Source: Marinovum algicola (lineage in GTDB: Bacteria > Pseudomonadota > Alphaproteobacteria > Rhodobacterales > Rhodobacteraceae). From it: a DNA stretch of 64,000 nt. Each line of letters opens with the position of its first letter. The stretch's first letter is position 1. The translations under genes were made by a program, and so were the position numbers. Below, piece after piece: positions 26,694 to 44,681 of the stretch. Under the pieces are notes generated by a model that ran no database searches, was not told the origin of the DNA, and saw nothing but the letters and a program-made list of their open reading frames with translations. The stretch is from positions 248,001 to 312,000 of the forward strand of contig NZ_FNYY01000001.1 in assembly GCF_900109145.1 (NCBI RefSeq), in the 5' to 3' direction.

Positions 26694-29507
26694 TTACATG
26701 ATGCGACGCCGCTGTCTCAGGCCGATCAGGGCGAGCAGTGCCGCGAACATCACGCCCCAGGGGCCGATGCCGCCGCCGGAACCGCCGCCGCCGCCATTGC
26801 CGCCGCCGCCGCCGCCGTTGCCGCCGCCATCAGGCACTTTCACCGGCTCATCCGAGGCCAGTTTTGCCCCGATCGAGACCGCATAGTTGCCCATGGCCGC
26901 CGTGGCATCGGCGTGTTCCACCGTGACCACGTGACCCGCGGCATCCAGCGAAGAGGCCGGAACCGTGGCCACAGCCCCCGAAGCCGCATTGGCGCTGGTC
27001 GACAGGTCGACCATCAGCAGCTCGGTTCCACCGGTCGCGTCGTAGACCCGCACCACAGGTTGCATGTCCAGCGCCAGCGAAGTCACGCGGGCGATCAGAT
27101 CATTGGCGGTGGAGGTCGGCGTGAAGAAGAAGCAGTCCACGTCGCCGGCCGCGTCGATCCGCCCGGCGGTATCGACGTTGTTGTCGGTGATTGCGGTACA
27201 GGCTCCGGGCACCGACGGATCATTGCTGTGATCGTCGGGTGCGACACCCGTCACCGCCGCGTTGGTCACCGCAACGCGGGTGAACATCTCGGTGATGTTG
27301 GTGGGTGTCGGGGTCACGCCATTGCCGTTTTCATCCACCGAGATCGCAGTCGCGGTGAAGGTGGTCTGCGCATTGCCTGACGTGTTCTCGGCGGTGACCA
27401 CCGCGGTATAGGTGCCGTCCATGTCGTAGGGCACATCCGCGGTGTAGGTGCCGTCGTCGGCCAGCCGGTCGGAGTTCTTGCCGTCGTCGAGCAAGGGCAG
27501 ATTGACCGTCGAACTGTCCGGCTTGGTCACCGTCGCCGTCACGTCGAGACCGGTGATTGCCGGGCCGTCGGTGACGGTGGCTTCGATCGCGAAGCTCTGG
27601 GGATAGTTCACGTTGTTGAACTCGACGGCGATGTCATAGCTCTCGAAGTCCGAGGGTGTCCCCGATACCAGAACCGAAACATCGATGTCGCTCGAGGTGT
27701 TGTTCACCACCTCGACCCCGTATTGCCCTGCGCCCAGGGTCGTAACGTCGACCTCGGCGTCACAGGAGACCTCGGCCCCAGCGTTGCAGGTAAAGGCCGC
27801 GCCGGTGTCCGCGCCGGTGCCGTCGAGCAGCCGCAGCGAGACATCGGTCACCGCCCCCGCGAAGGAGACGTTGATCGCCGCTGTCGCCAGCGAGCTGTCA
27901 AGCGTGACATTGCGCACGTCGGTGGTGCTGGCGGTGGCCGCCGCAGTGGTCGATTGCACAACCACACTCGACGAGAAGGCGGCATTGGCAGCGACAAAGG
28001 CCTGCTGGATCTGCGCCAGCGTGGTGGGCGAGAAGAAGTACTGCCCGCCGGTGCCATTGGCCAGGCTCTGCAACAGGCCGGCGTTCACGCCCGAGCCGAA
28101 GCCGAAGGTCACCAGAGGCACCTTGGCGGCGGTATAGGCGTTGATCACGGTCGTCTGATTGACCGAACTCTGACCATCGGTCAGCAGATAGACCACCGAG
28201 GGACGGGTGCCGCCCTGGAAGCCCTGCACCTGTGCCAGCGCGGTCAAGGCCGCGTCCTCGATATCGGTGCCCCCGCCAGCGCTGAAGGCGGCGATGGCCG
28301 TCTGGGCGCCGCTGCGCACGCCGGTATCCGGATCAGGAATATCGGTGATCGCAAAGACCTGGGTGGCGCTGCTGGTGAACCGGCCGACGCCGACGGCGTT
28401 TTCGCCCGGGGTCAGTTGGCCGACCAGAAGGCTGGCCGCGGTCTTGGCATTGGAAATCGGCGTGCCTGACATCGACCCCGAGGTGTCGATCATCAGTTCC
28501 GCCACCTGATTGCCGGCCCAGATGATGTCAAGCTCGCTGCGGGCGGTGCTTTCGTCATCGTTGACGATCAGGTTCGGCGCGGTGGGTGCCACCAGGTTGG
28601 TGTATTGCGTCCGCGTCGGCAGGAAGCTGTGCCGCGGGTCAGTCGCCGGATCACGCGTGAGCGTGGCCCATCCGTTTTCGCCGAACACCCTGGCCTGACC
28701 GTTCTTGTCGTCGCCATCGGCCTGTGTGGCATAGGGTTCGACGCCGAGGGTCGAAACCTCGAGCCAGTCCTGGCTGCCGCTGACCGCGGTCCATTGGCCG
28801 TTCATGATGGACGGCGACGAGGCGGTATCGGTCGAGCGCGGGAAGAAGATCACGCAGTTGGTTTCCGGCGTCTGGCCGCAGTTGGCGACATATTCGTCAT
28901 AGATGCCGTAGGTGTAATGTCCCCATTCATGCGCCAGGGTGAACCCTGCGCCTTTGGGGGTGTCCATCAGCGTCGGCGCGCCTTCCCAGTTGGTGCAGAA
29001 ATAGATCCGGGCGCCCGCCACGCCAAAGCCGCTCGGATTGGCCCGCGGCCCGGGGGCCGTAGTGGTCGGATCGCTGTCGGTGCAGTTTTCCTTCCATTGC
29101 ACGTCGGTGTTGTTGGCCTGATCGCCATCGCGGAAGATCGTGACCTTGCCGATCTTGTGTTTGCCGTTGGTCATCTGGAAGACGGCGTCGGCGAATTCTT
29201 CGATTTTCTTCTCGAATTTGTTCTGGTCGTCGTCATCCGTGGCCGGTGTCGGTTCTTCCGGATACTCGTCGTCGCCCTGCGGGTTTTCCTCGAGCGAGAT
29301 GCTGAGATCGAAGACCGCGGTGGTGCTGGTGGCCCTTGGCAGCGGTCGGCTGCTCAGTTCCCCGGCACTGTAGGTCGTGCGCGCGCCATTCTCGATGGTT
29401 GTCACCGTCGACAACCAACTTGAGGCGGCATAGGCCGGCTGGGCCGCCAAACAGGCCACCCCGGCGGTCGCCAATAATTTGGCTATAGTGTGTCGTACAT
29501 GCTTCAT
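26694..29507 (-). CDS. Secreted CLCA-like metalloprotease/VWA protein with GlyGly-CTERM-like tail
   Basis: 937 residues. Signal peptide (MKHVRHTIAKLLATAG...AYA); a CLCA-type N-terminal domain with zinc motif HEWGHYTYGIYDEY (His193, Glu194, His197, Asp204); a VWA domain (about 336-520) with MIDAS motif DTSGSMS (Asp341); beta-sandwich domains to about 860; then a Gly-rich linker, a hydrophobic helix (GPWGVMFAALLALIGL) and an RQRRR end. That tail is the tripartite form recognised by rhombosortases on type II-secreted proteins. ATG 29507 has GGGGGAG upstream. The T2SS and rhombosortase genes lie 3-15 kb away. Substrate of the protease unknown. Confidence 0.85.
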   Translation of the reverse strand: MKHVRHTIAKLLATAGVACLAAQPAYAASSWLSTVTTIENGARTTYSAGELSSRPLPRATSTTAVFDLSISLEENPQGDDEYPEEPTPATDDDDQNKFEKKIEEFADAVFQMTNGKHKIGKVTIFRDGDQANNTDVQWKENCTDSDPTTTAPGPRANPSGFGVAGARIYFCTNWEGAPTLMDTPKGAGFTLAHEWGHYTYGIYDEYVANCGQTPETNCVIFFPRSTDTASSPSIMNGQWTAVSGSQDWLEVSTLGVEPYATQADGDDKNGQARVFGENGWATLTRDPATDPRHSFLPTRTQYTNLVAPTAPNLIVNDDESTARSELDIIWAGNQVAELMIDTSGSMSGTPISNAKTAASLLVGQLTPGENAVGVGRFTSSATQVFAITDIPDPDTGVRSGAQTAIAAFSAGGGTDIEDAALTALAQVQGFQGGTRPSVVYLLTDGQSSVNQTTVINAYTAAKVPLVTFGFGSGVNAGLLQSLANGTGGQYFFSPTTLAQIQQAFVAANAAFSSSVVVQSTTAAATASTTDVRNVTLDSSLATAAINVSFAGAVTDVSLRLLDGTGADTGAAFTCNAGAEVSCDAEVDVTTLGAGQYGVEVVNNTSSDIDVSVLVSGTPSDFESYDIAVEFNNVNYPQSFAIEATVTDGPAITGLDVTATVTKPDSSTVNLPLLDDGKNSDRLADDGTYTADVPYDMDGTYTAVVTAENTSGNAQTTFTATAISVDENGNGVTPTPTNITEMFTRVAVTNAAVTGVAPDDHSNDPSVPGACTAITDNNVDTAGRIDAAGDVDCFFFTPTSTANDLIARVTSLALDMQPVVRVYDATGGTELLMVDLSTSANAASGAVATVPASSLDAAGHVVTVEHADATAAMGNYAVSIGAKLASDEPVKVPDGGGNGGGGGGNGGGGGSGGGIGPWGVMFAALLALIGLRQRRRIM

Positions 29508-29578
29508 CAGACGAACTCCCCCTGGATCAATGGTTTTTCGAACAAACATCCATCGGGCGCATGAGTGCCGCTAAGCGG

Positions 29579-30283
29579 TCACCTGCCCGAAAGAATACCA
29601 AAATACGCGTGGCCGTCCGGCAGGTCCGCTATGAATCGGGACCGGCCCGGGTTGGTTTCGACGAACCCCCGGAACGCACTGTCGGTACGGGTTACAATGT
29701 GACTTCCGCCAAGTGCCTCAGCCAAATTCTTTTCAATGTCCCCGCCACAGCCGTCCGCGGAAAGCGCGAGATCGGCACGACCGGGGTTGTTTGGCGCCAG
29801 AATGGACCAGATGTAGTTTCCGCTGGGCGGCGCACTCACTGGCGCCGCGCCGCGCCAGGCCTCGATCAACCCGCTCAGCGCCGGCGTGGCGGCAATGCGG
29901 AAGACAAAGCGGGTTTTGCCGCCGGGTTCGAGATAGGCGATCTCGACGGTAAATGTCGGAGGCGAAGGGATCGTGCCATCGTTGGGCACCATGGCGTGAC
30001 GCGGCTGCGTGCGGGAAATATCCGCCAGGGCGCTTTGATATGCCTCTACCCCAAGGTCGACAAGTTGGGACCGGCCGAGCAAATTGTTTCCGTCGTTCCA
30101 GAGCGCACGGCTCAATGTGCCGTCCGGGCTGATCCTGAATCCTTCGCGAAGATAAGAGCCGGCATCAAGCTGCCCGATGACCACGTCGATGCTGCGGGTG
30201 TCGCGAGTCTCGCATGCGGCCAGCGCTGCACCCGGAATGACCAGGCTGAAAATTAAAAAGAATAGCGGCAGTATATTCCGCAC
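29579..30283 (-). CDS. Secreted hypothetical protein
   Basis: 234 residues with a clear signal peptide (MRNILPLFFLIFSLVIPGAA, cleavage after ALA). The mature part starts ACETRDTRSIDVVIG and holds one further Cys pair region (DGCGGD). No known domain recognised. It ends 71 bases upstream of the CLCA-like gene on the same strand, so they may share a promoter. Possible secreted partner, not proven. Confidence 0.75.
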   Translation of the reverse strand: MRNILPLFFLIFSLVIPGAALAACETRDTRSIDVVIGQLDAGSYLREGFRISPDGTLSRALWNDGNNLLGRSQLVDLGVEAYQSALADISRTQPRHAMVPNDGTIPSPPTFTVEIAYLEPGGKTRFVFRIAATPALSGLIEAWRGAAPVSAPPSGNYIWSILAPNNPGRADLALSADGCGGDIEKNLAEALGGSHIVTRTDSAFRGFVETNPGRSRFIADLPDGHAYFGILSGR

Positions 30284-30663: not shown

Positions 30664-31923
30664 ATGCGGATTTGTTTTTCCAAGCGACGTCCCCGCCTTT
30701 TCCCGGCGCAGCGGGCAATCTATATCCTGACGTGTCTTTTCCTTGTCATCGCCGGTGCGGCGCAGGCGCATTTCAGCCTCGGCACCAAGATCCGCCATAT
30801 GTTTCTGAGCGAGGCGGAGGGCCTGACCGAGGTTCTTGTCTTTTCGCCGATCCCGCTGGTTTTTGCCGATGTGCTGAGCGGCGAAAAGGACACCGAGGGG
30901 TTTCTTGCCACCGTCGGCCCCGCCGATGCGCCCGGCGTCATTCTTTTGCCCGAGGCCGCCAATGCCGCGTCAGAGGCTTTTGCCGCGCGACTGGCACAAA
31001 GTCTTCGCTGGCGGGTCGGCCCACGCGAGATCACGCCCGAGATCGAGGCGTTCCGTATCCTGCCGGGGCCGCCGCCCGAGGGGCTGGCCTCGGTCGAGGC
31101 GGCGGCCGCGCTGCTGGCCACGCCGTCGCCCGAAGGGCCGGTGAGCATCGGTTCGGGTTATGTCGCCATGCGGCTGCGGCTGGACGCGCAGGCCCTGCTG
31201 CTGCCCCTGACGGTAGAGGCCGGATTGCCGGCGCTGACCCTGGCCGAAGGTGTCAGGATCGACAATCATGTGGTCGATGCCCGCAGCGACACGCCGCGCA
31301 GCTTCACCCGCCCGGGCCAGCTCGAACGGCCGCTGACGCTGCCCGAGGGCTGGATCGGCTGGGCGGCGGAATATGTCTATCAGGGCATCGTTCATATCCT
31401 CGAAGGGATCGATCATGTCTTCCTTGTGGTGGCCATGTCGCTTGCCGCGACGACCGCGCTGAGCCTGCTGCGCAACATCACCGCCTTCACCCTGGGCCAT
31501 GCGGTCACGCTGGCCGCCGGGTTCCTTGGGTATGCCCCGAGAAGCGCGTGGTTCATCCCCGCCGTCGAGGCGGCGATTGCCGCGACGATCATCATGGCGG
31601 CGATCACCAGCTACCTGCGGATGCGCGCCTCTGCCACGATTTACGTGCTGATCGGCCTGCTGCACGGCTTCGGGTTTTCCTTTGTTCTCGCCCGGTTGCT
31701 GGGGCCCGGCTCGCCCGATCTGGTGCCGGCTCTGGCGGCTTTCACGGTCGGGATCGAGATCGGCCAGTTGGCTATCGTGGCGATGGTGCTGGCGTTGTTC
31801 TGGGGGCTGCGCCAGGCCACCGCACCGGGGGCCGAACTGGCCCGCAAGAGCGTTCTGGTGATCCTCGGTCTGGTGGCAACCTACATGGTGGTCGAGCGGA
31901 TTCCGGCGCTCCTGGGCGCCTGA
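30664..31923 (+). CDS. HupE/UreJ-type membrane protein with N-terminal periplasmic domain
   Basis: 419 residues. Signal helix (about 14-35, ending AAQAHFSLG), a periplasmic domain of about 190 residues, then a C-terminal six-helix HupE/UreJ-like domain with conserved HILEGIDHVFLVVAMSL, ITAFTLGHAVTLAAGF and LLHGFGFSFVLARLLG. The His/Asp/Glu-rich helices resemble nickel/cobalt permeases of the HupE group, but the natural substrate of this two-domain form is not known. ATG 30664 is preferred; TTG 30631 is in frame. Convergent with gspO after 4 bases. Confidence 0.8.
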   Translation: MRICFSKRRPRLFPAQRAIYILTCLFLVIAGAAQAHFSLGTKIRHMFLSEAEGLTEVLVFSPIPLVFADVLSGEKDTEGFLATVGPADAPGVILLPEAANAASEAFAARLAQSLRWRVGPREITPEIEAFRILPGPPPEGLASVEAAAALLATPSPEGPVSIGSGYVAMRLRLDAQALLLPLTVEAGLPALTLAEGVRIDNHVVDARSDTPRSFTRPGQLERPLTLPEGWIGWAAEYVYQGIVHILEGIDHVFLVVAMSLAATTALSLLRNITAFTLGHAVTLAAGFLGYAPRSAWFIPAVEAAIAATIIMAAITSYLRMRASATIYVLIGLLHGFGFSFVLARLLGPGSPDLVPALAAFTVGIEIGQLAIVAMVLALFWGLRQATAPGAELARKSVLVILGLVATYMVVERIPALLGA

Positions 31924-31927
31924 GTCG

Positions 31928-32653
31928 TCACCGCCACAGCAGGACAAGCCCCGCCGCCGCGCAAAGAAAGACGCCGAAGGGCAGGGGCGTGTCGCGGTTG
32001 GCGCGGCCGAAGACCCCCAGCGCCGCCGCCGCCAGCCCGGCCAGCGAGGCCAGCAGGCCCACCCAAGGCAACGCCAGCGCGCCCAGCCCGGCGCCGATGC
32101 CGGCGGCCAGTTTCACGTCGCCCAGCCCCAGGCCCTCACGGCCCCGGAGGCCCTGATAACCCCAGCGCAACGCCAACAGCGTCACGGCGCCGATTGCCCC
32201 GCCGACAAGCGCATTGCCCGGGCCCCGGCCGTCCAGCCAGGCCAGCCCCAGCCCGAGGGCAAACAGCAGCCCGGTCATCACATCCGGCAGCCGTAGGCAG
32301 ATCAGGTCGGTCAATCCCAGCGCCAGCAACAGCCAGAGGTATCCGAGGGTCAGCGCCAGCCCCGGCAAAGTCTCTGTCACCACGATGGCCGCCAGCGCCG
32401 CGGCGATCGCCAGAACCTCTGCCGCCAGCAAGCGCCAGGGCAGGGCGGCGCCGCAGTACCGGCAACGCCGCCTGCGCAGAAGGAAGGATACCACGGGGAT
32501 CAGGTCGCGCGCCGCCAATCGCCTGCCGCAACCGGTGCAGGCCGAGGGCGCCGAGAGCGAGCGCCCGTCACAGCTGCGCTCGGCCCAGACCGCCAGGAAC
32601 GAGCCCACCGGCCCGGCCAGCAACACGGCAAGCCAGAGCCAGAGATCATCCAT
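31928..32653 (-). CDS. gspO: Type II secretion prepilin peptidase
   Basis: 241-residue A24 aspartic protease of the inner membrane that cleaves and methylates the pseudopilins encoded next door. Zn-binding CTGCGRRL/CRYCG pair in the N-terminal loop, catalytic Asp in LGLTDLICLRLPD, and the second in GLGLGDVKLAAG (GxGD). ATG 32653 (MDDLWLWLAVLLAGPVGS) overlaps the rrtA stop by 8 bases, so it is coupled to it. Confidence 0.92.
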   Translation of the reverse strand: MDDLWLWLAVLLAGPVGSFLAVWAERSCDGRSLSAPSACTGCGRRLAARDLIPVVSFLLRRRRCRYCGAALPWRLLAAEVLAIAAALAAIVVTETLPGLALTLGYLWLLLALGLTDLICLRLPDVMTGLLFALGLGLAWLDGRGPGNALVGGAIGAVTLLALRWGYQGLRGREGLGLGDVKLAAGIGAGLGALALPWVGLLASLAGLAAAALGVFGRANRDTPLPFGVFLCAAAGLVLLWR

Positions 32654-33338
32654 CGGCGGTGACCGCCGCCGGCAGCGCCGCCGCTTCGCGCTCGGCATGG
32701 ATCAGCGACAGCATCAGGCAGACCAGCCCGACACCGAGCCGCGGCCAGAACGGCCCCTCGCGCGCGGCCAGCGCTCCGCCCAGGGTGCCCAGCGTATGCG
32801 ACACGAAGCTGACCCGCCCGCCAATCGCCGCATCGGCGCCCGGCACCGCGCCATTGAAGAATTCCTGCCCCAGCTTGGCCGCGACGCAGGCCAGGATTAG
32901 CCCGCCGAACCAGCGTGGCCCGGTCCGCAGCATCACCAGCCCGCCAAAGGTCATCACGCCATGGGTGATGCCGGAAAATCCCACATAGGTGACCCCGGCA
33001 GGCATCAGCGCCAGCCAGCCCAGGCTGATCGCCGCGCCGGAGAGCAGGATCGCGCGCGCCAGCATCCGGGGTGTCAGGATCGACCACAGGCTCACCAGGA
33101 TCAGCCCCAGCCCGAGGATGTTGAGATGGGTGTGCACACGGCTGAGATTGACCAGATGCGCGGTCACCAGCCGCCAGAGCTCGCCCCGCAGCACGGTGCC
33201 ATTTTCCAGCAGGAAAAGCCGCCGCAGCGCCGCGCCCCCCAGATCGGTCACCAGCATGCCAAGCGCGATTGCAACCGCGATGCCGACCAGCCGCAACAAC
33301 ATTGAGCGCTGCTCAATCATCGGATAGGCTCGATGCAT
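32646..33338 (-). CDS. rrtA: Rhombosortase-like rhomboid protease
   Basis: 230 residues, about six membrane helices. Catalytic dyad candidates Ser122 in YVGFSGITHG and His181 in VSHTLGTLGGAL. The GELWRLVTAHLVNLSRVHTH segment and GxSGxxHG motif match rhombosortases, the rhomboids that process GlyGly-CTERM tails after type II export. It is encoded just upstream of gspO and divergent from gspG, and a protein with such a tail lies nearby at 26694. Start choice: ATG 33338 (AGGAG close by), 33320 or 33302. Confidence 0.8.
   Translation of the reverse strand: MHRAYPMIEQRSMLLRLVGIAVAIALGMLVTDLGGAALRRLFLLENGTVLRGELWRLVTAHLVNLSRVHTHLNILGLGLILVSLWSILTPRMLARAILLSGAAISLGWLALMPAGVTYVGFSGITHGVMTFGGLVMLRTGPRWFGGLILACVAAKLGQEFFNGAVPGADAAIGGRVSFVSHTLGTLGGALAAREGPFWPRLGVGLVCLMLSLIHAEREAAALPAAVTADG
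33301..33317. promoter_or_regulatory. Inverted repeat between rrtA and gspG
   Basis: ATTGAGC-GCT-GCTCAAT, perfect 7-bp arms. It lies in rrtA codons if translation starts at 33338, or in the intergenic gap if at 33302. Placed to regulate both divergent units; regulator unknown. Confidence 0.4.
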
Positions 33339-33364: not shown

Positions 33365-33823
33365 ATGATTGAAAACAACCACATTCCCTCGAAAACGCAA
33401 GGCCGGGACGCGGGCTTCTCGCTGTTGGAGCTTATGGTCGTCGTGGTCATCATGTCGATCCTCGCCCTGGTCATCGTGCCCCGGGTGATCGACCGGCCCG
33501 ATCAGGCGCGCGCGGCGCGGGTGCAGACCGATCTTTCGGTGCTCAAGAGCGCGGTCGAGCTCTACCGGCTCGACAATTTCCGCTATCCCACCACCGAACA
33601 GGGGCTTGCCGCGCTTGTCGAACGGCCAAGCCAGCCGCCGGTGCCCGAGAATTATGCCAGCAAGGGCTATATCGACCGGGTGCCGCGCGATCCCTGGGGG
33701 CGCGCGTACCAATATCTTCAGCCCGGTATCCATGACAGTTTCGACATCTTTTCGCTTGGCGCCGACGGGCGCGAAGGCGGCAGCGGAAGTGACGCGGATT
33801 TGGGGACATGGCAGGTCGAATAA
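33365..33823 (+). CDS. gspG: Type II secretion major pseudopilin
   Basis: 152 residues. Prepilin peptidase site AG-FSLLELMVVVVIMSILAL with Glu5, then the GspG hallmark DNFRYPTTEQGLAALVE and a C-terminal calcium-site region (SLGADGREGGSGSDADLGTW). It polymerises into the periplasmic pseudopilus. ATG 33365 lies only 26 bases from the divergent rrtA start at 33338. It overlaps gspH by 16 bases. Confidence 0.96.
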   Translation: MIENNHIPSKTQGRDAGFSLLELMVVVVIMSILALVIVPRVIDRPDQARAARVQTDLSVLKSAVELYRLDNFRYPTTEQGLAALVERPSQPPVPENYASKGYIDRVPRDPWGRAYQYLQPGIHDSFDIFSLGADGREGGSGSDADLGTWQVE

Positions 33824-34272
33824 CGCCTCAAAGCGGGTTTTCGCTGGTGGAACTGATGATCGTCGTCGCGGTCCTTTCGATCCTGAGCCTCGGCGCGGTG
33901 CTGGCCATCGACCTGCGCGATCCGCGCGGCAGCCGCGACGTGGCCTGGCTGGAACAGACTTTCGCGACCGCGCGGCGCGAGGCAATTCTGACCCGGAGGG
34001 AGGCGCGCTTTGCGATCAGCCCGACCGGAGTGACGCGGATGGCGCCGGGAGAGGGCGGATGGCAGCCCGAGGGGGCCGAGTCCGCGCTTGACGGTCTGGT
34101 CACCGCCACCGCCGGCTATGGCGCGCTGCGGGATGATCTGGGCCGTGTGATCATTGCGCTGCTGCCCGACGGCCGCACCAGCGCCTTCGACCTGCGGCTC
34201 GAAGCCGGACGACAGGTCTGGACCTGCGCCGCCGATGGCTGGGGGGCGCTGGCATGCGACGGCGAAAGCTGA
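33808..34272 (+). CDS. gspH: Type II secretion minor pseudopilin GspH
   Basis: 154 residues. Type IV prepilin N-terminus SG-FSLVELMIVVAVLSILSL with Glu5 and a GspH-like C-terminal domain. It sits between gspG and gspI, overlapping both. Probably part of the pseudopilus tip. Confidence 0.9.
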   Translation: MAGRITPQSGFSLVELMIVVAVLSILSLGAVLAIDLRDPRGSRDVAWLEQTFATARREAILTRREARFAISPTGVTRMAPGEGGWQPEGAESALDGLVTATAGYGALRDDLGRVIIALLPDGRTSAFDLRLEAGRQVWTCAADGWGALACDGES

Positions 34273-36177: not shown

Positions 36178-37355
36178 CGGGCCGCAAGACGAGGACCATG
36201 CCGGATATCTGGCGGATGGACAGCGGCGATGCGCCGCCCCCAAGCGGCGCCTTCATCGCCGTGGTGCCGGGCGAGGCGGCGCCGCTCTTTCCGCTCGATC
36301 TGCCCGCGCGTCTGCGCGACGGCATCCGCAATCAGGTCGCCCGCCAGCAGGTGGAAAACCTGCTTCAGGACAGTCTCGACGCGGTCGAGCTTCGGGTGAA
36401 CCGGCCCGGCCGCGACGGCGCGGCGGCGGCGCTTGTGGTCACGGCAGAGCGCGCGCGCGACTGGCGTGACCGGCTGAGCGAGCAGGGGCGGCGGGTCGCC
36501 GCGCTCTTGCCCGACTATCTGGTCCTGCCGGTGGTGGCCGAGGGCTGGGCGCTGCGCTGTTTGCCCGAGGGCGAACGGGTGCTGGCGCGGCTCGGCCCGG
36601 CCGATGGCTTTGCCGCCGGCCTGCCGGTGGCGCTGGCGCAGCTCCGCGCGGTCCTGGCGCGATCCGGGGCGCCACAGCGTGTCTACCTTTGTGACAGCCC
36701 GGTGTCCGAGACCCTGCGCCGCGTCCTCGAGGCGACCTCGGCCGAGATCCACGCCGGCTGGCCGGACGAAGCCGCGCTGCTGGGCCATGGCGAGGCCGAT
36801 TTCAACCTGTTCCGCGATCCTGCTGCCGACCGGATGGCGGTGCGGCGGCAGGTACGGCGCTGGCGCGGGCCGATGGCGGCGATGGCAGCCGGGCTGGCGG
36901 CGCTGGCGGCGGCGCTCTGGATCGACGGCGCGCGGATCGAGGCCGCGGCCCAGCGCCAGCGCGACGCCGCCACCGAGGTGGCGCGCGCGGCGTTCCTGCC
37001 CAGCGGGCCGATCCTCAACCTGCGGCTTCAGGTGGGCCGTGTCGTGGCCGAACGGCAGGCGGCCGAGGCCACCCCTGCGCAGGGGGTGGGCTCGATGGAT
37101 GTGCTGCACGCCGCGGCGCAGGTGCTGGCGCAGAGCCCGGTCACCCTGCGCCGCGTCACGCGCACCGCCGGCACGCCGCTGCGGGTCGAGCTCGAGGTCG
37201 GCGATTTTGCCGCGCTCGAGCAGGTGGTCGCGCGGCTGAACGGGGGCGCAATCCGGGCGCGCGTGGTCAATTCCTCGGCTGAGGCCGATGCGCGGGTAGC
37301 GGCGCTGGTGGAAATCGTGGCGGCGCCGGGTGCGGCGGAAAGGGGGCTGCGATGA
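36174..37355 (+). CDS. gspL: Type II secretion inner-membrane platform protein GspL
   Basis: 393 residues. Cytoplasmic actin-like domain (about 1-220), one membrane helix (AMAAGLAALAAALWIDGA, about 240-257) and a periplasmic ferredoxin-like domain. GspL links the ATPase GspE to GspM. Sequence is divergent; call rests on topology and position. Overlaps gspM by ATGA. Confidence 0.85.
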   Translation: MTGRKTRTMPDIWRMDSGDAPPPSGAFIAVVPGEAAPLFPLDLPARLRDGIRNQVARQQVENLLQDSLDAVELRVNRPGRDGAAAALVVTAERARDWRDRLSEQGRRVAALLPDYLVLPVVAEGWALRCLPEGERVLARLGPADGFAAGLPVALAQLRAVLARSGAPQRVYLCDSPVSETLRRVLEATSAEIHAGWPDEAALLGHGEADFNLFRDPAADRMAVRRQVRRWRGPMAAMAAGLAALAAALWIDGARIEAAAQRQRDAATEVARAAFLPSGPILNLRLQVGRVVAERQAAEATPAQGVGSMDVLHAAAQVLAQSPVTLRRVTRTAGTPLRVELEVGDFAALEQVVARLNGGAIRARVVNSSAEADARVAALVEIVAAPGAAERGLR

Positions 37356-37843
37356 TCCCGGTCTCGGACAGCCTTTCCGCGCTCAGCCGCCGTGAACGCA
37401 GGCTGGTCGGCCTGTTGGTGGCGGGCGCCCTGCCGCTGGCGGTGGTGTTTTTGGTGCTCCTGCCGCTGGTCGAGGCCCGTCAGGCCGCGAGCCAGAGGCT
37501 GGCCGAGGCGCGCGAGCTGCACCTCTGGGTCAGCACCCAGGCGCGGCTGTATCCGCCAGTGGAGGATCCGGCCGGCGAGGCCGGTCCGCCACCCGCTGCG
37601 GGCATGTCGGGGCTGGAACAGAGCCTTGTTGACGCCGGTCTGCGCGCGGCGGTCTCGTCGCTGTCGAACCAGGGCGCGGACCGGGTGGCATTGCGTTTCG
37701 ACCGCGTGGCCTTTGGCCGGTTCATGCCGTGGTTTGCAGGGCTGGCGGACACCGCGGGCTACACCCCCGAGAGCTTTTCGATCGAGAGCCTCGGCGCGCC
37801 GGGCTATGTCGCGGTGGCGCTGGTTCTGGAGCCGGGAGCATGA
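37352..37843 (+). CDS. gspM: Type II secretion inner-membrane platform protein GspM
   Basis: 163 residues. Short cytoplasmic LSALSRRERRLVGLL, one membrane helix (VAGALPLAVVFLVLLPLV) and a periplasmic domain with a coiled start. Canonical GspM architecture; GspM pairs with GspL. Overlaps gspN by ATGA. Confidence 0.88.
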   Translation: MIPVSDSLSALSRRERRLVGLLVAGALPLAVVFLVLLPLVEARQAASQRLAEARELHLWVSTQARLYPPVEDPAGEAGPPPAAGMSGLEQSLVDAGLRAAVSSLSNQGADRVALRFDRVAFGRFMPWFAGLADTAGYTPESFSIESLGAPGYVAVALVLEPGA

Positions 37844-38582: not shown

Positions 38583-39116
38583 TTAGCCCAGCGCGGCGAG
38601 TTCACTGGTGATCAGCGCCCGGCGCCGGGCCATCGCCTTGCCGATGTCGAGCCCGGGATATTCCGCCAGCAGCTCATCGAGCGCCGAGGCCGCCGCTTGC
38701 AGGCGCTGGCGGGTGGCGGCGCCCCGGTCGCCGGCGGCAATCGCGCTCCGGGCGATCTCGTGGTCGGCCGAGGCCGCCACCGCCAGCGCCATGCCGCGCA
38801 CCGGCCCGGTCTGCGACGCGGCCAGGCTGCGCGCCGCGCGCGAGGCGGCTTCGTAGTCGCCGCCACGCAGCTGGGCGTGACTCAATTCCAGCATCAGCCG
38901 GGCCTCGACCGCGCCGGCGGGGTAGTTTTTCAACAGTTTCTGATAGCTGCGGGCGGCCGCATCATAACGCCCGGTTTCCAGGGCATCGCGCGCGGCGAAA
39001 TATTGCTGCTGAAAGCCGCCACCGGACGGGGCGGCGAGATCCGTACAGCCCGAAAAGCCCAGCAGGGCCAGTCCGACCACGGCCGGAACGCGGAGTCGTG
39101 CCATGCTCATACCCAT
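38583..39116 (-). CDS. TPR-like lipoprotein within the T2SS locus (candidate pilotin)
   Basis: About 173-177 residues. Lipobox LLGFSGC gives a lipid Cys near 20, then tandem helical repeats (DALETGRYDAAARSYQKLL, AQLRGGDYEAASRAARSLA) typical of TPR. It is on the opposite strand between gspN and gspC. No GspS gene is seen, and TPR lipoproteins serve as secretin pilotins in type IV pilus systems, so a pilotin role is an inference. Three Met codons (39116, 39110, 39104) are possible starts. Confidence 0.7.
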   Translation of the reverse strand: MGMSMARLRVPAVVGLALLGFSGCTDLAAPSGGGFQQQYFAARDALETGRYDAAARSYQKLLKNYPAGAVEARLMLELSHAQLRGGDYEAASRAARSLAASQTGPVRGMALAVAASADHEIARSAIAAGDRGAATRQRLQAAASALDELLAEYPGLDIGKAMARRRALITSELAALG

Positions 39117-39280
39117 TGAATTGATTTGAAATTCTGCCTCTTTTTTTCTAAACTATATCAAAAGTTCGCGTTGGTTCAATCTGCTGGAAATTGTCTTTCA
39201 TTCACAGGGGACCGGGCGCAACACTATAATATACTCGCCGATGAGGCTGGCGGCACCCATGGAGGAGCGAAGCGCAACTC

Positions 39281-40084
39281 GTGTTTCGGGCAGATCACAT
39301 TCTATCGCTTGTCGGATCCGCCGTGTTGGGGCTGGGCGGGGGCGCCTTGGCGCTGATCCTGACCGCGAGCCCGGAAATCCCGCTGAGCCGTGTCACCTTT
39401 GATCCGACTGCCCGCGCCGAGGCCGCCGAGAGCCGCGCCGAGTGGCTCTGGCCGGCGCTTTTCGGCGAGATCCCGCCGGAGCCGGTGGCCGCCACCGAAA
39501 CCGCCGCGCCCGAGCCTTCACCGGATTTCAGCCTCAAGGGGCTGGTGGCGGGCGGCGAGGGGGGCTGGGCCATCGTTTCGGCCGACAGCGGCGATCACCT
39601 GGTCAGTGTCGGCTCGGTGCTGCCGGGCGGAGCCGAGGTGATCGAGATTCAGCCGGATGGCGTGCGCATCTCTCTGGATGACAAGGAATTTCTGATCGGG
39701 TTCGACGAAGAGGCCGAGGCGCCGATGGTTGCGGCAGAACTCGCGCCAGCGCCGGCGGTGCAAAGTGCCAGCCTGTCGCTCTCGGCGCTGCGCGACGACG
39801 GGTTCCAGCGATCGCTTGGGCTGGCCGGGGGCTCGAAGATCGTCGATCAGGGCAACGGCAATCTGGCGCAGCAGATTATGTGGGTGCGCAACGGGCGGCT
39901 CTATGACAAGGTCGGGTTGCGCAAGGGCGACATCATCCTGACGCTGAACGGCGTACCGGCGGGCGATATCGACGCGCTGCGCCAGGCCGCGCCGGAGCTG
40001 TTGCGGCAACGTGATTTCGAGCTTGAGCTTCTGCGGGCCGGGGCGCGCATGACATTGAAAGTGCAAATTGATGAAGACAGTTGA
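39281..40084 (+). CDS. gspC: Type II secretion GspC with PDZ domain
   Basis: 267 residues. One membrane helix near the N-terminus (ILSLVGSAVLGLGGGALALI), an HR domain (FSLKGLVAGGEGGWAIVSA) and a C-terminal PDZ domain (LYDKVGLRKGDIILTLNGVP). GspC joins the inner-membrane platform to the secretin. The GTG start follows GGAGGAG by 13 bases. Overlaps gspD by 14 bases. Confidence 0.9.
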   Translation: MFRADHILSLVGSAVLGLGGGALALILTASPEIPLSRVTFDPTARAEAAESRAEWLWPALFGEIPPEPVAATETAAPEPSPDFSLKGLVAGGEGGWAIVSADSGDHLVSVGSVLPGGAEVIEIQPDGVRISLDDKEFLIGFDEEAEAPMVAAELAPAPAVQSASLSLSALRDDGFQRSLGLAGGSKIVDQGNGNLAQQIMWVRNGRLYDKVGLRKGDIILTLNGVPAGDIDALRQAAPELLRQRDFELELLRAGARMTLKVQIDEDS

Positions 40085-41999
40085 GCGTCTCTTTCTTGCC
40101 GGGTTGATCTGGCTCGCGGTGGCCACGACCGGCGCGGCGCAGGTCAAGCTCGACATGCGCCAGGCCAACCTGCGGGATTTCGTCTCGATCGTCGCCGACA
40201 GCACCGGGCGCAATTTCATCCTCGATCCGCGGGTGCAGGGCACGGTCACCGTGCTGGCCCCGCGCGAGGTGACGCCGGCGGCGCTCTACGAGATCTTTCT
40301 CAATGTGCTCGAACTCAACCGGCTGACCATTGTCGAGGGCACCGAGGCCGACCGCATCGTGCCGCTTGATGTCGCGCGCGAGCTGGCGCCGCCGCGGGTG
40401 GTGGGCAGCGGCGGCTATCAGACGCGGGTGATCCCGGTCAACAACGTGCCGGTGACCGACATCGTCGACGTGATCCGCCCGCTGGTCGCTGGCGAGGCGG
40501 TGCTGACGGCGGTGCCGGATGCCAACCTGCTGGTGCTCTCCGACCGGCTCGAGAGCTATCAGCGGATCTCGGCGCTGGTGGCCCGGCTCGACACCCCGCG
40601 GAGCGACGCGATCGAGACCATCCGACTGCAAAACGCCAATGCGGTGGAGCTGCTGGCGGTGGTGCAATCGCTCGATCTCGGGCCCGAAGGTAGCAATGTC
40701 TCGGCCGATTCCCGCGCCAATGCGCTGGTGGTCTCGGGCGACAAGGCCTATCGGCAGCGGGTGCGCCGGCTGGTCGGCCAGCTCGACACGCCGCAGCGCA
40801 GCTTTGCCACCGTCGTCGTGCGACTGAACTATGCCGATGCCAAGGAGCTGGAGCCGGTGATCCAGCGCTCTTTCGGCGCCGCGACGGGCGAAGACGGCAG
40901 CTCGGGCGGGGAGATCAATATCGTCGCCGAGCCGCAGCAGAATTCTCTGATCATCACCGGCCCGACCGAGCGCATCCAGACCGTGGCGCAATCCATCGCG
41001 GCGCTCGATCAGAAGCCCAGCCAGGTGTTGATCGAGGCGGTGGTCTTCGAGCTGTCGGTCGAGAATTTCTCGGATCTCTCGGTGCAGTTCGGCGCGCTGC
41101 TCAACGATGCGCTGGTCGGCGGGGTGGAGTTCTCGCTCGACGGTCGCCCGACGCTGACCGGGTTGGTCAGCTCAGTGCTTCAGGGCAATATCTCGGCGCC
41201 CGGCAGCGGCGGATTCCTGGGTGGCCGGCAGGTCAGGGGCGAGTCCGGCATCGGCGGCTTTCTTGCCGCGCTGGCCAGCCAGAGCTCGACCCGGCTGCTG
41301 TCGACCCCCTCGATCCTGACGCTGAACAACGAAGAGGCAAGGATCGTCGTGGCGCAGAACGTGCCCTTTGTCACCGGCAGCTATTCCACCGTCGGCGACA
41401 GCGCCATCCCGAATGATCCCTTTCAGACCATCCAGCGCGAGGATGTCGGCCTGACGCTCGAGGTGACGCCGCAGATCACCGCCGATCACAACGTGCGGCT
41501 CAAGATCAATCAGGAGGTCTCGAACCTGACCAATTCCGCCTCTGCCGCCGGCGGCGAGATCACCTCGAAACGGACACTGTCGACCAATGCCATCGTACGC
41601 GACGATCATGTGATCATCCTCGGCGGGCTGGTCGAGGACGGCTCGGGCGTCAACGATCAGCGGGTGCCGGGGCTGAGCCGGGCGCCGATCATCGGCAATC
41701 TTTTTCGCGGCCGCAATGTCGCGTCGGGGCAGCGGGTGCTGCTGATCATGCTGCGGCCCCGCATCCTAGACAGCGCCGAGGAGGCGACGCGTTACACCCG
41801 AAAGATCGCCCGCGAGGCCCGGCTTGTGACCGAGCGGATCGCGCCGCGCGACGATGGCCGTTATCCGACGATCCCCGAGGGCCGGCTGCCCTTCGACGGT
41901 GCCGATCTGAACCAGCCGTTCGAGGCCGGCGCCTCGGACAACATGGTGATCGAGCGGCTGATGCCGGCCCTGCCGAAAAGGCTCGAATTCAGCAGGTGA
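40071..41999 (+). CDS. gspD: Type II secretion outer-membrane secretin
   Basis: 642 residues. Signal peptide to about 23 (GAAQVKLDM...), N0 domain (LDMRQANLRDFVSIVADSTG), N1-N3 repeats (PVTDIVDVIRPLV, NAVELLAVVQSLDLG, DAKELEPVIQRSFG), and the secretin core (LSTPSILTLNNEEARIVVAQ, then VGLTLEVTPQIT and IILGGLVED). The C-terminal S-domain, which binds a pilotin in some systems, is short. Forms the outer-membrane channel. ATG 40071 is preferred to TTG 40068. Confidence 0.96.
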   Translation: MKTVERLFLAGLIWLAVATTGAAQVKLDMRQANLRDFVSIVADSTGRNFILDPRVQGTVTVLAPREVTPAALYEIFLNVLELNRLTIVEGTEADRIVPLDVARELAPPRVVGSGGYQTRVIPVNNVPVTDIVDVIRPLVAGEAVLTAVPDANLLVLSDRLESYQRISALVARLDTPRSDAIETIRLQNANAVELLAVVQSLDLGPEGSNVSADSRANALVVSGDKAYRQRVRRLVGQLDTPQRSFATVVVRLNYADAKELEPVIQRSFGAATGEDGSSGGEINIVAEPQQNSLIITGPTERIQTVAQSIAALDQKPSQVLIEAVVFELSVENFSDLSVQFGALLNDALVGGVEFSLDGRPTLTGLVSSVLQGNISAPGSGGFLGGRQVRGESGIGGFLAALASQSSTRLLSTPSILTLNNEEARIVVAQNVPFVTGSYSTVGDSAIPNDPFQTIQREDVGLTLEVTPQITADHNVRLKINQEVSNLTNSASAAGGEITSKRTLSTNAIVRDDHVIILGGLVEDGSGVNDQRVPGLSRAPIIGNLFRGRNVASGQRVLLIMLRPRILDSAEEATRYTRKIAREARLVTERIAPRDDGRYPTIPEGRLPFDGADLNQPFEAGASDNMVIERLMPALPKRLEFSR

Positions 42000-42003
42000 G
42001 GGC

Positions 42004-43467
42004 ATGAGCACAAGGGCACAGCTTCCGTTCGCCTTCGCCCGCGACCATCAGGTTGTGCTGTCCGAAGGCGCCCTGGTGGCCGGGCCGGAAGCCACGCCCA
42101 CCGGGCTGCGCGAGGCCCTGCGCCGCGCCTTTGATGCCCCGGTCGATTTCACCCAGCTCGACGCCGACGCTTTTCAGGACAGGCTGATGGCCGCCTATCA
42201 GGGCAATGGCCAGGACGCGCCCGAAGAGGTCGAGGCGCAGGACAGCGTGGTGCTGGACGACAGCTCGCTCGAGGCGCCGCCGACCGATTTGCTCGACACC
42301 GGAAGCGACGCACCGGTGATCCGGCTGGTCAACCATTTCCTGCGCCGCGCGGTCGAGGCCCAGGCCTCGGACCTGCATGTCGAGCCGCATGAAGGCGGGC
42401 TGCGCGCGCGCATCCGGGTCGATGGCACCTTGCAGACGATCTATGACCGCGCCGGCGCCCCGGCACGGCGGGTGATCTCGCGGCTCAAGGTGATGGCCGG
42501 GCTCGACATCGCCGAGACCCGGCTGCCGCAGGACGGCCATATCGCGTTGCGCTATGGCGGGCGCTCGATCGATGTGCGGGTCTCGACGCTGCCGGGCAAC
42601 TACGGCGAACGGGTGGTGATGCGGGTGCTCGACAAGACCGCCGGGCTGATGCCGCTGGCCGATCTCGGGCTGCGCCCGGCGCAGGTGGCCGAACTCGAGG
42701 CGCTGAGCGCCGCGCCGCATGGCATCGTGCTGGCCGCCGGGCCGACCGGCGCGGGCAAGACCACCACGCTCTATTCCCTCCTCAAGCTCGCCAATCAGGC
42801 CGAGCGCAACATCCTCACCGTCGAGGACCCGATCGAATACGATCTGCCGGGCATCAACCAGAGCCAGATCCACGCCGAGATCGGGCTGACTTTTGCCGCC
42901 GGGCTGCGCGCCGCGCTGCGCCAGGACCCCGACATCATCCTGGTCGGCGAAATCCGCGATCAGGAGACCTCGAGCGTCGCCGCGCAGGCGGCGCTGACCG
43001 GCCATCTGGTGTTCTCGTCGGTGCACGCCAATTCCTCGGTTGCGGCGATCATCCGGCTGCGCGACCTCGGGCTCGAGGATTACCTGATCGCCGCCACCGT
43101 CCGCGCGATTATCGCGCAGCGGCTGTTGCGTCAGCTCTGCCCCGCCTGCCGCCGCGCGGCACCGCCCGATGCGGTGGCTCGCGCGGCTTTTGACGCGGTG
43201 GAGATGAGCCCCCCGGCCGAGGTCTTCCATGCCGAGGGCTGCCCGGAGTGCAATGGCAGCGGCTATGCCGGACGGGCCGGGATATACGAGATCGCCACGG
43301 TGACAGACGCGCTGCGCGCCGCGATTGACGAGGGCGCGCCGGAACAGCGGCTCAAGGCGCTGGCGCTCACCCCGCAACAGACACTTCTGGGCGAGGCGCT
43401 GCGCCTGGTCAGCGCCGGCACCACCGATTTCCGCGAGGTGGCGCGGGTCGTGGGCACCAGCCCGTGA
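42004..43467 (+). CDS. gspE: Type II secretion ATPase GspE
   Basis: 487 residues. Powers pseudopilus assembly from the cytoplasm. N2-type domain with SDLHVEPHEGGLRARIRVDG (122-141), Walker A GPTGAGKTTT (246-255), Walker B DPDIILVGEIRD (308-319), His-box TGHLVFSSVHAN (332-343), and a C-terminal tetracysteine zinc site (Cys379/382 and Cys413/416). All catalytic elements are intact. Follows gspD by 4 bases; overlaps gspF by ATGA. Confidence 0.97.
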   Translation: MSTRAQLPFAFARDHQVVLSEGALVAGPEATPTGLREALRRAFDAPVDFTQLDADAFQDRLMAAYQGNGQDAPEEVEAQDSVVLDDSSLEAPPTDLLDTGSDAPVIRLVNHFLRRAVEAQASDLHVEPHEGGLRARIRVDGTLQTIYDRAGAPARRVISRLKVMAGLDIAETRLPQDGHIALRYGGRSIDVRVSTLPGNYGERVVMRVLDKTAGLMPLADLGLRPAQVAELEALSAAPHGIVLAAGPTGAGKTTTLYSLLKLANQAERNILTVEDPIEYDLPGINQSQIHAEIGLTFAAGLRAALRQDPDIILVGEIRDQETSSVAAQAALTGHLVFSSVHANSSVAAIIRLRDLGLEDYLIAATVRAIIAQRLLRQLCPACRRAAPPDAVARAAFDAVEMSPPAEVFHAEGCPECNGSGYAGRAGIYEIATVTDALRAAIDEGAPEQRLKALALTPQQTLLGEALRLVSAGTTDFREVARVVGTSP

Positions 43468-44681
43468 CCGCCTTTCGCTACACCGCCTATACCGCTTCGG
43501 GCCAGCGCCGCCGCGGTACATTGGTGGCCGAGACCCGGACCCAGGCCAATGACCAGCTGCGCGCCAAGGGGTTGTTTCCGGCCGAGATCGAAGCCCGCGC
43601 CGCCGGGCGCCGCATCGCCTTTCTGCGACCGCGCACCGTGCTCAGCGCCGATGAACGCGCGGTTTTCACCCGTCAGCTCGAGGTGCTGCTCTCGGCCGAT
43701 ATCGCGGTCGACATGGCGCTCGAGACGGTGAGCAGCTCGGGCGGATCGCAGCGCATAGAAGCGGTGGCCAATGCCGCTCGCGCCGCACTTCAGGAAGGCG
43801 AGAGCCTGAGCCGGGCGCTGGGTGACAGCGATGCCGGGTTTCCGCCGTATTTTTTGGCCGCCATTGCCGCCGGCGAGACATCGGGCGAGCTGGCACGGGT
43901 GGTCAACGAGCTGGCCCACCACCTGGAAACCGCCGGACAGGACCAGTCGCGCCTGGCCACGGCGCTGATCTATCCGGCCTTCGTTGCCGCCGTCTCGCTG
44001 GTGGTCTGCGCCATCCTCGTCACCAGCGTCGCGCCGCAGCTGGTCACGATGTTCGAGGCGACCGGCCAGCCGCTGCCGGGGATCACCCTGCGTCTGCTGG
44101 CGGTTTCGGACTGGCTGCAAGCCAACTGGCTGGCCTGCCTGGTTGCGGTAATCGTGGCCGGGACCGCCGCGCGGCTGGCGCTGCGCGTGCCGCGCCTGCG
44201 CGACCGTTGGGACGGGTTCCGCCTGTCATTGCCGATTGCCGGCCGGCTGATCCGCAACGCCGCCGCACTGCAATATCTCCGGACCCTGGCGCTGGTGATC
44301 TCGAGCCGGCAGACCGCGCTTGATGCGGTGCGCAGCGCCGAGCGTGTCCTGACCATCCGCCGGTTTCAGCGCGAGGCCGCCGAGGTCTCGGTGGCGCTGC
44401 AACGGGGCGAAAGCCTCAGCCGCGCCCTGGCGCAGCTGACGGTGATTCCGCCGGTCTGCTGCCAGCTGATCGGCGCTGGCGAGCAAAGCGCGCGGGTGGC
44501 GCCCATGGCCGACCGCGCCGCGCGGCTGGTGGCAAGCTGGCTGGAGAACGACCGCAAGCGCATCGCCGCGCTGATGGACCCGCTGCTGATGATGATCGTC
44601 GGCAGCTTCGTTCTGGTCGTGGTGCTGGCGATTCTGTTGCCGATCTTCGATCTGCAAGCGATGGTGGCGGCGCCGGGCTGA
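43464..44681 (+). CDS. gspF: Type II secretion inner-membrane protein GspF
   Basis: 405 residues with two GspF domains (about 65-190 and 265-395) and three membrane helices. FTRQLEVLLSADIAVDMALE and GEQSARVAPMADRAARLV are canonical. Platform protein for pseudopilus assembly. Last gene of gspCDEF; no gene follows before the truncated enolase fragment. Confidence 0.95.
   Translation: MTAFRYTAYTASGQRRRGTLVAETRTQANDQLRAKGLFPAEIEARAAGRRIAFLRPRTVLSADERAVFTRQLEVLLSADIAVDMALETVSSSGGSQRIEAVANAARAALQEGESLSRALGDSDAGFPPYFLAAIAAGETSGELARVVNELAHHLETAGQDQSRLATALIYPAFVAAVSLVVCAILVTSVAPQLVTMFEATGQPLPGITLRLLAVSDWLQANWLACLVAVIVAGTAARLALRVPRLRDRWDGFRLSLPIAGRLIRNAAALQYLRTLALVISSRQTALDAVRSAERVLTIRRFQREAAEVSVALQRGESLSRALAQLTVIPPVCCQLIGAGEQSARVAPMADRAARLVASWLENDRKRIAALMDPLLMMIVGSFVLVVVLAILLPIFDLQAMVAAPG

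What the first reader, a model, noticed from the sequence alone, without database searches (positions are those of the whole stretch)
26694..44681. Type II secretion, rhombosortase and a GlyGly-CTERM-type protein in one locus
The block encodes a near-complete T2SS (GHIJKLMN and CDEF), its prepilin peptidase, a rhomboid with rhombosortase motifs (Ser122/His181) beside gspO, and a secreted 937-residue protein ending in a Gly-rich, transmembrane, Arg-rich tail. Known rhombosortases cleave such tails after type II export and lead to surface attachment. The co-location strongly suggests a dedicated secretion-and-processing unit for one main substrate, with a HupE-like protein and a secreted unknown as further members. 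A compact unit with a CLCA-like client in a Rhodobacteraceae-type genome may not have been described.
Basis: partly seen in the sequence, partly recalled or inferred. Interest (0 to 1): 0.85.

Follow-up and report, generated by a model that had tools for sequence, protein, structure and literature searches.

The report
Secretion unit with built-in rhombosortase
A marine-type bacterium carries, next to a complete protein-export machine, the enzyme that probably trims and anchors one large surface protein resembling an animal metalloprotease; it is a new variant of a known sorting system and a simple case for testing it.

Summary
The block encodes a complete T2SS (gspC-O), a TPR lipoprotein, a rhomboid passing the rhombosortase model (93.1 bits, cut-off 84), and a 937-aa CLCA-like metalloprotease-motif/VWA protein with a Gly-rich/TM/Arg tail. 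The tail does not hit the GlyGly-CTERM model, but homologues in two Shewanella and two Pseudoalteromonas carry tails that do.

The unit is more than chance. Tropicibacter alexandrii shows the same order as far as its locus reaches, and Rhodobacteraceae genome G152 a rearranged version. The client profile occurs in 2 of 295 family genomes, the two with T2SS-linked rhombosortase. The same T2SS type occurs in 17 of 295; 16 other loci show no rrtA or client (gspG side in view in 13). So rrtA and client look like a module added to a family T2SS, rrtA lying at the gspO/gspG junction and overlapping gspO. Elsewhere T2SS genes adjoin rrtA in 1 of 49 phylum loci.

Corrections: in Vibrio, cleavage precedes T2SS export; dedicated rrtA-target pairs are known. 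New variant of a known kind.

The parts
26694..29507 (-). CLCA-like secreted protein (937 aa): signal peptide, HExxH metalloprotease-like N-terminal part, VWA, choice-of-anchor X domain, C-terminal sorting tail; the proposed client
   Evidence: Pfam VWA 64.3 bits; CLCA PF08434 14.8 bits, below cut-off 25.6; NF041940 choice_anch_X 41.9 bits over cut-off 25, TIGR00868 51.1 bits below cut-off; homologues; VWA part matches the human CLCA1 VWA structure 6pyx, TMt 0.81
26694..26825 (-). C-terminal tail, residues 895-937: Gly-rich stretch, GP-W, hydrophobic helix, GLRQRRR
   Evidence: alignment of five rhodobacterial tails with invariant GG, GP, GLRQRR; no TIGR03501 hit; TM segment 912-930
28890..28931 (-). 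HEWGH...DEY (residues 193-206), zinc-metalloprotease motif of CLCA type
   Evidence: H193, E194, W195, G196, H197, D204, E205, Y206 invariant in 17 of 17 rows
28473..28487 (-). DTSGS (residues 341-345), MIDAS motif of the VWA domain (motif name recalled)
   Evidence: sequence; S345 invariant, D341 and S343 nearly so in 17 rows
27390..27500 (-). choice-of-anchor X domain (residues 670-706)
   Evidence: NF041940 41.9 bits, cut-off 25
29579..30283 (-). secreted protein of unknown family directly upstream of the client gene; candidate client-specific partner or chaperone
   Evidence: no Pfam or NCBIfam hit; homologues next to the client in L052, L053, L055, L056, L061; model pLDDT 81 with no PDB match at E<=0.001
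30664..31923 (+). HupE/UreJ-like membrane protein
   Evidence: PF13795 102.3 bits; also near the client in T. alexandrii, G152 and Granulosicoccus
31928..32653 (-). gspO prepilin peptidase; the chosen ATG overlaps the rrtA stop codon (ATGGATGA); an earlier ATG at 32698 is possible
   Evidence: PF06750, PF01478; junction sequence
32646..33338 (-). rrtA rhombosortase, Ser122/His181
   Evidence: TIGR03902 93.1 bits, cut-off 84; tree and active-site columns
33365..33823 (+). gspG, divergent from rrtA
   Evidence: PF08334 132.4 bits
33808..34272 (+). gspH
   Evidence: N_methyl over cut-off, GspH 20.2 bits just below cut-off 21
34254..34652 (+). gspI
   Evidence: N_methyl over cut-off, T2SSI 22.2 bits below cut-off 25
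34649..35248 (+). gspJ
   Evidence: PF11612 49 bits
35245..36177 (+). gspK
   Evidence: PF21687, PF03934
36174..37355 (+). gspL
   Evidence: TIGR01709 80.6 bits over cut-off 65
37352..37843 (+). gspM
   Evidence: PF04612 76.5 bits
37840..38577 (+). gspN
   Evidence: PF01203 33.1 bits, cut-off 29.6; no NCBIfam hit
38583..39116 (-). TPR lipoprotein of the T2SS locus (BamD/YbgF-like repeats)
   Evidence: TPR_18 and YfiO over cut-off; found in 11 of 16 other family T2SS loci
39281..40084 (+). gspC
   Evidence: PF11356 37.3 bits over cut-off 27; TIGR01713 55.9 bits, below its cut-off
40068..41999 (+). gspD secretin
   Evidence: TIGR02517 405.7 bits over cut-off
42004..43467 (+). gspE
   Evidence: PF00437 423.2 bits
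43464..44681 (+). gspF
   Evidence: PF00482 143.1 bits

Best explanation
This is a dedicated T2SS-rhombosortase unit: a complete T2SS of a type found in some Rhodobacteraceae, to which a module of rhombosortase, client and client partners has been added. Proposed path: (1) The CLCA-like protein enters the periplasm by Sec and is held in the inner membrane by its C-terminal helix (inferred from architecture). (2) It folds, possibly with help from the secreted protein encoded just upstream (inferred). (3) RrtA cuts in the Gly-rich stretch before the helix and, as in V. cholerae, leaves the new C-terminus free or joined to an ethanolamine lipid (inferred by homology). (4) The T2SS moves the folded protein across the outer membrane, where it stays as a surface metalloprotease or adhesin (inferred). 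Shown here: gene content, family membership of RrtA, conservation of the block, one tail of this type per genome, co-occurrence of tail and RrtA, and rrtA-gspO overlap. Not shown: cleavage, lipid transfer, export route, protease activity.
For: RrtA over the TIGR03902 cut-off; Ser/His invariant in 61 of 61 rows. Same block in T. alexandrii as far as the locus reaches (gspD-F lie beyond its edge): rrtA 65%, gspO 52%, hupE 52%, unknown 34%, client 62%. Contiguous and rearranged in G152, without gspG and gspO. gspN-G, rrtA, gspO also in MAG G298. rrtA stop and a gspO ATG overlap in window, T. alexandrii (8 nt each) and G298 (14 nt). RrtA of these four genomes is one clade, support 100/100. Client profile in 2 of 295 family genomes, both RrtA-positive. 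Among 19 genomes with a readable client C-terminus, RrtA is over cut-off in 8 of 9 with a tail and 1 of 10 without (Fisher p 0.001). No exosortase-family hit in 6 of 6 genomes of this group (the seventh genome searched, G171, has one). The tail profile finds one strong gene in each of the 5 genomes that have the tail. Choice-of-anchor X domain.
Against: None of the five rhodobacterial tails reaches the GlyGly-CTERM cut-off of 15.5 bits: no hit for window, T. alexandrii and L055, 11.6 for G152 in the genome search, 7.5 for T. litoralis. MYXO-CTERM scores higher for two of them, 22.0 for G152 (over its cut-off of 20) and 18.6 for T. litoralis, although none has the Cys. In MAG G298 client and T2SS lie on different contigs. 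In Granulosicoccus a 60% client homologue has no such tail although a T2SS-linked RrtA is present. A second T2SS in the own genome could be the exporter. The Fisher count includes close relatives (two Shewanella, two Pseudoalteromonas). The five strong hits are the rows of the profile itself, so only the absence of others is informative.
Confidence: 0.75

Rival explanations
1. RrtA does cleave the client, but the T2SS next door is only a neighbour: the client leaves by the second T2SS (contig C19) or stays in the periplasm, and co-location reflects joint transfer.
For: A second T2SS secretin and GspG are in the genome. In G298 client and T2SS lie on different contigs. Outside this group rrtA is rarely near T2SS genes, 1 of 49, so RrtA does not need an adjacent T2SS.
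Against: The block is kept between T. alexandrii, G152 and the window at 47-65% identity for rrtA and client. rrtA overlaps gspO in 3 of 3 genomes where the pair was seen. The C19 system has a distant GspD, 34%.
Confidence: 0.17
2. The tail is an ordinary C-terminal membrane anchor, or a signal for another enzyme (exosortase, myxosortase or IPTL type), and RrtA acts on something else.
For: Tail of the window: no TIGR03501; IPTL_CTERM 13.7 bits (cut-off 20.5) and MYXO-CTERM 9 bits. The G152 tail reaches 22.0 bits with MYXO-CTERM, over its cut-off, and that of T. litoralis 18.6. A myxosortase was not searched for.
Against: RrtA is over the rhombosortase cut-off, while the other rhomboids of the family draw score 53 bits or less. 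No exosortase-family protein in 6 of 6 such genomes. No Cys in the tails, which the MYXO-CTERM signal always has according to PMC3237569. Homologues have GlyGly-CTERM tails over cut-off. Tail and RrtA co-occur.
Confidence: 0.08

Closest known systems
Rhombosortase/GlyGly-CTERM system (Haft and Varghese 2011, PMC3237569; V. cholerae RssP-VesB, PMC6219818)
   Same: RrtA family model and catalytic residues; tripartite tail; apparently one target per genome, encoded in the same locus; T2SS involved
   Different: rrtA lies inside a T2SS locus and overlaps gspO; the tail escapes TIGR03501 and has GP-W and GLRQRR; the host is a rhodobacterium. Table 1 (selected genomes) and Table 3 of the 2011 paper list no genome that I recognise as alphaproteobacterial, and its discussion reports no T2SS subclass marked by rhombosortase
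Bacterial CLCA metalloproteases (Lenart et al. 2013, PMC3650047)
   Same: HExxH motif, VWA domain, patchy occurrence in aquatic alpha- and gammaproteobacteria and Chloroflexi
   Different: That paper found no conserved neighbourhood in prokaryotes; here one is conserved with T2SS and rhombosortase
T2SS chaperone-effector pairs such as CpaB-CpaA (PMC4713064)
   Same: A small gene with an N-terminal hydrophobic segment sits next to the gene of a T2SS-linked putative metalloprotease
   Different: No sequence comparison with CpaB was made; requirement for secretion unknown; the hydrophobic segment may be a cleaved signal peptide
Myxosortase/MYXO-CTERM (PMC11980579)
   Same: Tripartite tail, T2SS-dependent surface location (passages); the G152 tail passes the MYXO-CTERM model
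   Different: The signal has an invariant Cys, absent here; a different protease, not searched for in these genomes

Membership tests
Rhombosortase (TIGR03902) | model score over curated cut-off | tested here: met
   93.1 bits against 84; 94.4 in the genome search
Rhombosortase (TIGR03902) | rhomboid catalytic Ser and His | tested here: met
   Ser122 and His181 aligned, 61 of 61 rows
Rhombosortase (TIGR03902) | cleaves a GlyGly-CTERM target | not testable with these tools
   needs biochemistry
GlyGly-CTERM (TIGR03501) | model score over cut-off | tested here: not met
   no hit for the window tail; none of 3 genomes over cut-off; none of the four other rhodobacterial tails over cut-off
GlyGly-CTERM (TIGR03501) | tripartite C-terminus: Gly motif without Cys, TM stretch, basic cluster | tested here: met
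   tail sequence, TM segment 912-930, five-row alignment
GlyGly-CTERM (TIGR03501) | homologues with trusted tails at the same place (the curation logic of Haft and Varghese) | tested here: inconclusive
   four gammaproteobacterial homologues end in TIGR03501 tails, but they carry about 300 extra residues before the tail
MYXO-CTERM (TIGR03901) | Cys in the signature motif and model score over cut-off | tested here: not met
   no Cys in any of the five tails; window tail 9 bits, cut-off 20; but G152 tail 22.0
Dedicated rhombosortase system (Haft and Varghese 2011) | a single target in the genome | tested here: inconclusive
   one gene with this tail type and no TIGR03501 hit over cut-off; targets with other tails cannot be excluded
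Dedicated rhombosortase system (Haft and Varghese 2011) | target no more than one gene from the protease gene (a tendency there, 16 of 21) | tested here: not met
   three genes lie between in the window and T. alexandrii; in G152 they adjoin
CLCA family | CLCA_N domain model (PF08434) | tested here: not met
   14.8 bits, cut-off 25.6
CLCA family | HExxH motif followed by a VWA domain | tested here: met
   CLCA1 VWA structure match
Type II secretion system | GspC to GspO present | tested here: met
   H and I slightly below model cut-offs
T2SS chaperone class (CpaB-like), for 29579-30283 | encoded beside its effector, N-terminal TM segment | tested here: inconclusive
   adjacent in 6 genomes; hydrophobic segment 4-22 could be a signal peptide
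T2SS chaperone class (CpaB-like), for 29579-30283 | required for secretion of the effector | not testable with these tools
   needs a mutant

The most novel reading that the evidence does not exclude
A T2SS subtype exists in which rhombosortase is a built-in, translationally coupled component made together with the prepilin peptidase, so that pseudopilus maturation and client anchoring are co-produced for one CLCA-type surface metalloprotease that has its own folding partner.
Probability: 0.35. Interest if true: 0.72.

Novelty: new variant of a known kind. Interest (0 to 1): 0.52.

Why it matters
In the best studied host, V. cholerae, six GlyGly-CTERM proteins share one rhombosortase, and the T2SS also carries other effectors (abstract), which makes the link between tail cleavage, lipid anchoring and T2SS export hard to isolate. 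Here one protease, one T2SS and apparently one client are encoded together in a rhodobacterium, and relatives keep the T2SS without the module (16 other loci, 13 with the gspG side in view). That gives a natural with/without comparison. It also gives bacterial CLCA proteins a predicted destination, and it suggests that the public tail model misses a tail class.

Tried and rejected
Exosortase as the processing enzyme: no TIGR04178 hit in G000, G152 and G295-G298, so rejected as far as that model reaches; a myxosortase was not searched for. Fold of the secreted unknown: confident model, but the best PDB match was E 0.0017 with TM 0.44 to a Mago protein chain, taken as no identification. VIA-align was not available. 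PDB sequence search of the client gave two VWA-type matches and three low-complexity ones. T2SS linkage of rrtA as one clade: the four rhodobacterial RrtA form a clade, but with Granulosicoccus and G724 the label needs 3 changes on the tree, so one common origin of all six is not shown. HupE function: not pursued.

Counts and what was left out. Alignment A3 used 17 rows: window, G152 and 15 of the 45 loci; L056 (same gene as G152), L052 (in-frame stop), L061 (cut by contig end) and 27 weaker matches were left out. One search was given 18 of those 45 loci. The tail/RrtA table has 19 genomes: window, G152 and 17 of the 18; L061 was dropped. For the phylum control, 49 of 49 non-own loci over cut-off were fetched, about eleven of them shortened by contig ends or by a stretch that starts at base 1. 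The tree used 60 rows, one (L202) dropped; one search used all 61.
Full report
What is there. The window lies at G000:C22:248001-312000 of a 5.4-Mb genome. Between 26694 and 44681 it encodes a complete T2SS: gspG-N at 33365-38577, gspC-F at 39281-44681 and gspO at 31928-32653. A TPR lipoprotein lies between gspN and gspC. rrtA (32646-33338) passes the rhombosortase model with 93.1 bits against a cut-off of 84. Beyond gspO come a HupE/UreJ_2 membrane protein (PF13795, 102 bits), a 234-aa secreted protein without any Pfam or NCBIfam hit, and the 937-aa client. The ATG that I take as the start of gspO overlaps the stop of rrtA (ATGGATGA), which suggests coupled translation. The same kind of overlap is seen in T. 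alexandrii (8 nt) and G298 (14 nt); other start codons are possible in each case.

The client. It has a VWA domain (64.3 bits), a choice-of-anchor X domain over cut-off and a HEWGH...DEY motif that is invariant in 17 of 17 aligned homologues. It resembles CLCA proteins without passing a CLCA model: PF08434 14.8 bits, cut-off 25.6; TIGR00868 51 bits, cut-off 901. The predicted structure (mean pLDDT 78) places the VWA part on human CLCA1 VWA 6pyx with TMt 0.81; many other VWA domains match too. Bacterial CLCA proteins, including one from the alphaproteobacterium Citreicella sp. SE45, are in print (PMC3650047, section 7 read). That paper reports no conserved neighbourhood in prokaryotes.

The tail. 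It has the three parts of a GlyGly-CTERM but gets no TIGR03501 hit: none in the whole protein, none for the isolated tail at E<=10; in three genomes no gene is over that cut-off. Five rhodobacterial tails share GG, GP and GLRQRR. None of the other four reaches the TIGR03501 cut-off of 15.5 bits either: T. alexandrii and L055 no hit, G152 11.6 bits, T. litoralis 7.5. With MYXO-CTERM (cut-off 20) the G152 tail scores 22.0 and that of T. litoralis 18.6, but all five lack the Cys of that signal. Homologues of the client in two Shewanella and two Pseudoalteromonas (34-37% identical) end in tails that score 24.8-30.7 bits with TIGR03501. I therefore call the tail a divergent relative of GlyGly-CTERM, not a member by the model.

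Is the co-location more than chance? The client profile matched 2 of 295 genomes drawn from the family (one per genus with one exception) at E<=1e-20. The rhombosortase model was over cut-off in 3 of 295: the same two and G171. In G152 the genes lie in one block: gspN-H, rrtA, client, unknown, hupE, TPR, gspC-F, without gspG and gspO. G152 is the record titled uncultured Rhodobacteraceae CANNFA010000003.1 (equal contig length). T. alexandrii has gspC, TPR, gspN-G, rrtA, gspO, hupE, unknown and client in the order of the window; its locus ends inside gspC, so gspD-F were not seen. A Rhodobacterales MAG has gspN-G, rrtA, gspO together, and client plus unknown on another contig. T. litoralis has unknown plus client at a contig edge; the client gene carries an in-frame stop and the genome search found no rhombosortase over cut-off (best 23.4 bits), which may be decay or an assembly gap. 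Among 19 genomes with a readable client C-terminus, 8 of 9 with a tail and 1 of 10 without have RrtA over cut-off (Fisher p 0.001, relatedness not corrected).

A module added to a family T2SS. The window's GspD has close relatives in 17 of 295 family genomes including its own (E<=1e-100), one of them a second species of the same genus. I fetched the 16 other loci, namely 15 genomes plus the second T2SS of G152. By tblastn at E<=1e-3 none of the 16 shows rrtA, client, unknown or hupE in the stretch; the gspG side is in view in 13 of them. In 9 of 16 gspO is divergent from gspG with no rrtA hit between. So rrtA most likely entered between gspG and gspO. In the phylum draw, 50 of 398 genomes have RrtA over cut-off. 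Of the 49 other loci, 1 (G724) has T2SS genes beside rrtA; Granulosicoccus, found through its client homologue, is another case. In the class draw 3 of 385, own included, have RrtA over cut-off. The other cases from this class (G171, G390, G521) have a VWA-type target with a Gly tail beside rrtA and no T2SS hit in the fetched stretch. The rhodobacterial T2SS-linked RrtA form a clade with 100/100 support, apart from those three. They have GFSG around the active Ser, where 53 of 61 rows have L in place of F; Granulosicoccus and one further genome also have F.

How it probably works. In V. cholerae rhombosortase cleaves VesB, exposes a Gly, and a glycerophosphoethanolamine-containing group is attached before T2SS engagement (PMC6219818, passages). 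The tail and rhombosortase suffice for membrane association, and a further secretion signal is needed for crossing the outer membrane (PMC13393428, abstract). No exosortase-family protein was found in six genomes of this group. The tail profile gives one strong match in each of the five genomes that have the tail, all rows of the profile itself, and nothing else below E 0.14 in these or two further genomes, which supports one client of this tail type. The upstream unknown lies beside the client in five further genomes, while T2SS genes were seen near the client in two further ones; two of the five loci are cut by contig ends. By analogy with CpaB-CpaA (PMC4713064, passages) it may be a client-specific chaperone. 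This is a guess; its fold matched nothing informative.

Novelty. [quoted passage not shown] section 15 read). The same paper says that no particular T2SS subclass is marked by rhombosortase (section 18 read). In the library 21 papers mention rhombosortase (listing), and no paper holds rhombosortase, CLCA and type II secretion together. A search with rhodobacterial names gave 3,892 papers, and the five listed do not mention rhombosortase, so it settles little. Most subscription papers are not in that library. I rate it a new variant of a known kind.

Noticed in passing
L034 (G171) 9329-12783 and 17924-19842: Exosortase T (657 bits) beside a VIT/VWA-type protein with a PEP-CTERM tail (20.1 bits, cut-off 16), and about 5 kb further a rhombosortase beside a second VWA protein with a Gly-rich tail: two sorting systems for the same kind of protein in one region.
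   Followed up: partly
G000:C19:40000-59900 (L241): A second, distant T2SS in the window's genome (GspD 34%, GspG 55%).
   Followed up: partly
L032/L033 (G152): The T2SS of the unit lacks gspG and gspO in the locus; the only GspG found in that genome belongs to its second T2SS. The two systems may share the major pseudopilin.
   Followed up: partly
L225-L240: In 16 other family T2SS loci the TPR lipoprotein was found in 11 and gspN in 3, never both, whereas the window, T. alexandrii and G152 have both (short divergent genes may be missed).
   Followed up: no
L060, L068, L071-L076, L080: CLCA-like proteins of Chloroflexi and related records often end in a short motif such as YLPLIRR or YLPLVRR, perhaps another C-terminal signal.
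   Followed up: no
L052 998-3802: Thalassovita litoralis client gene has one in-frame stop, and no rhombosortase over cut-off was found in that genome.
   Followed up: partly
L054 4446-7397: Granulosicoccus client homologue (60% identical) ends in a Cys-containing C-terminus without the sorting tail although the genome has a T2SS-linked rhombosortase.
   Followed up: partly
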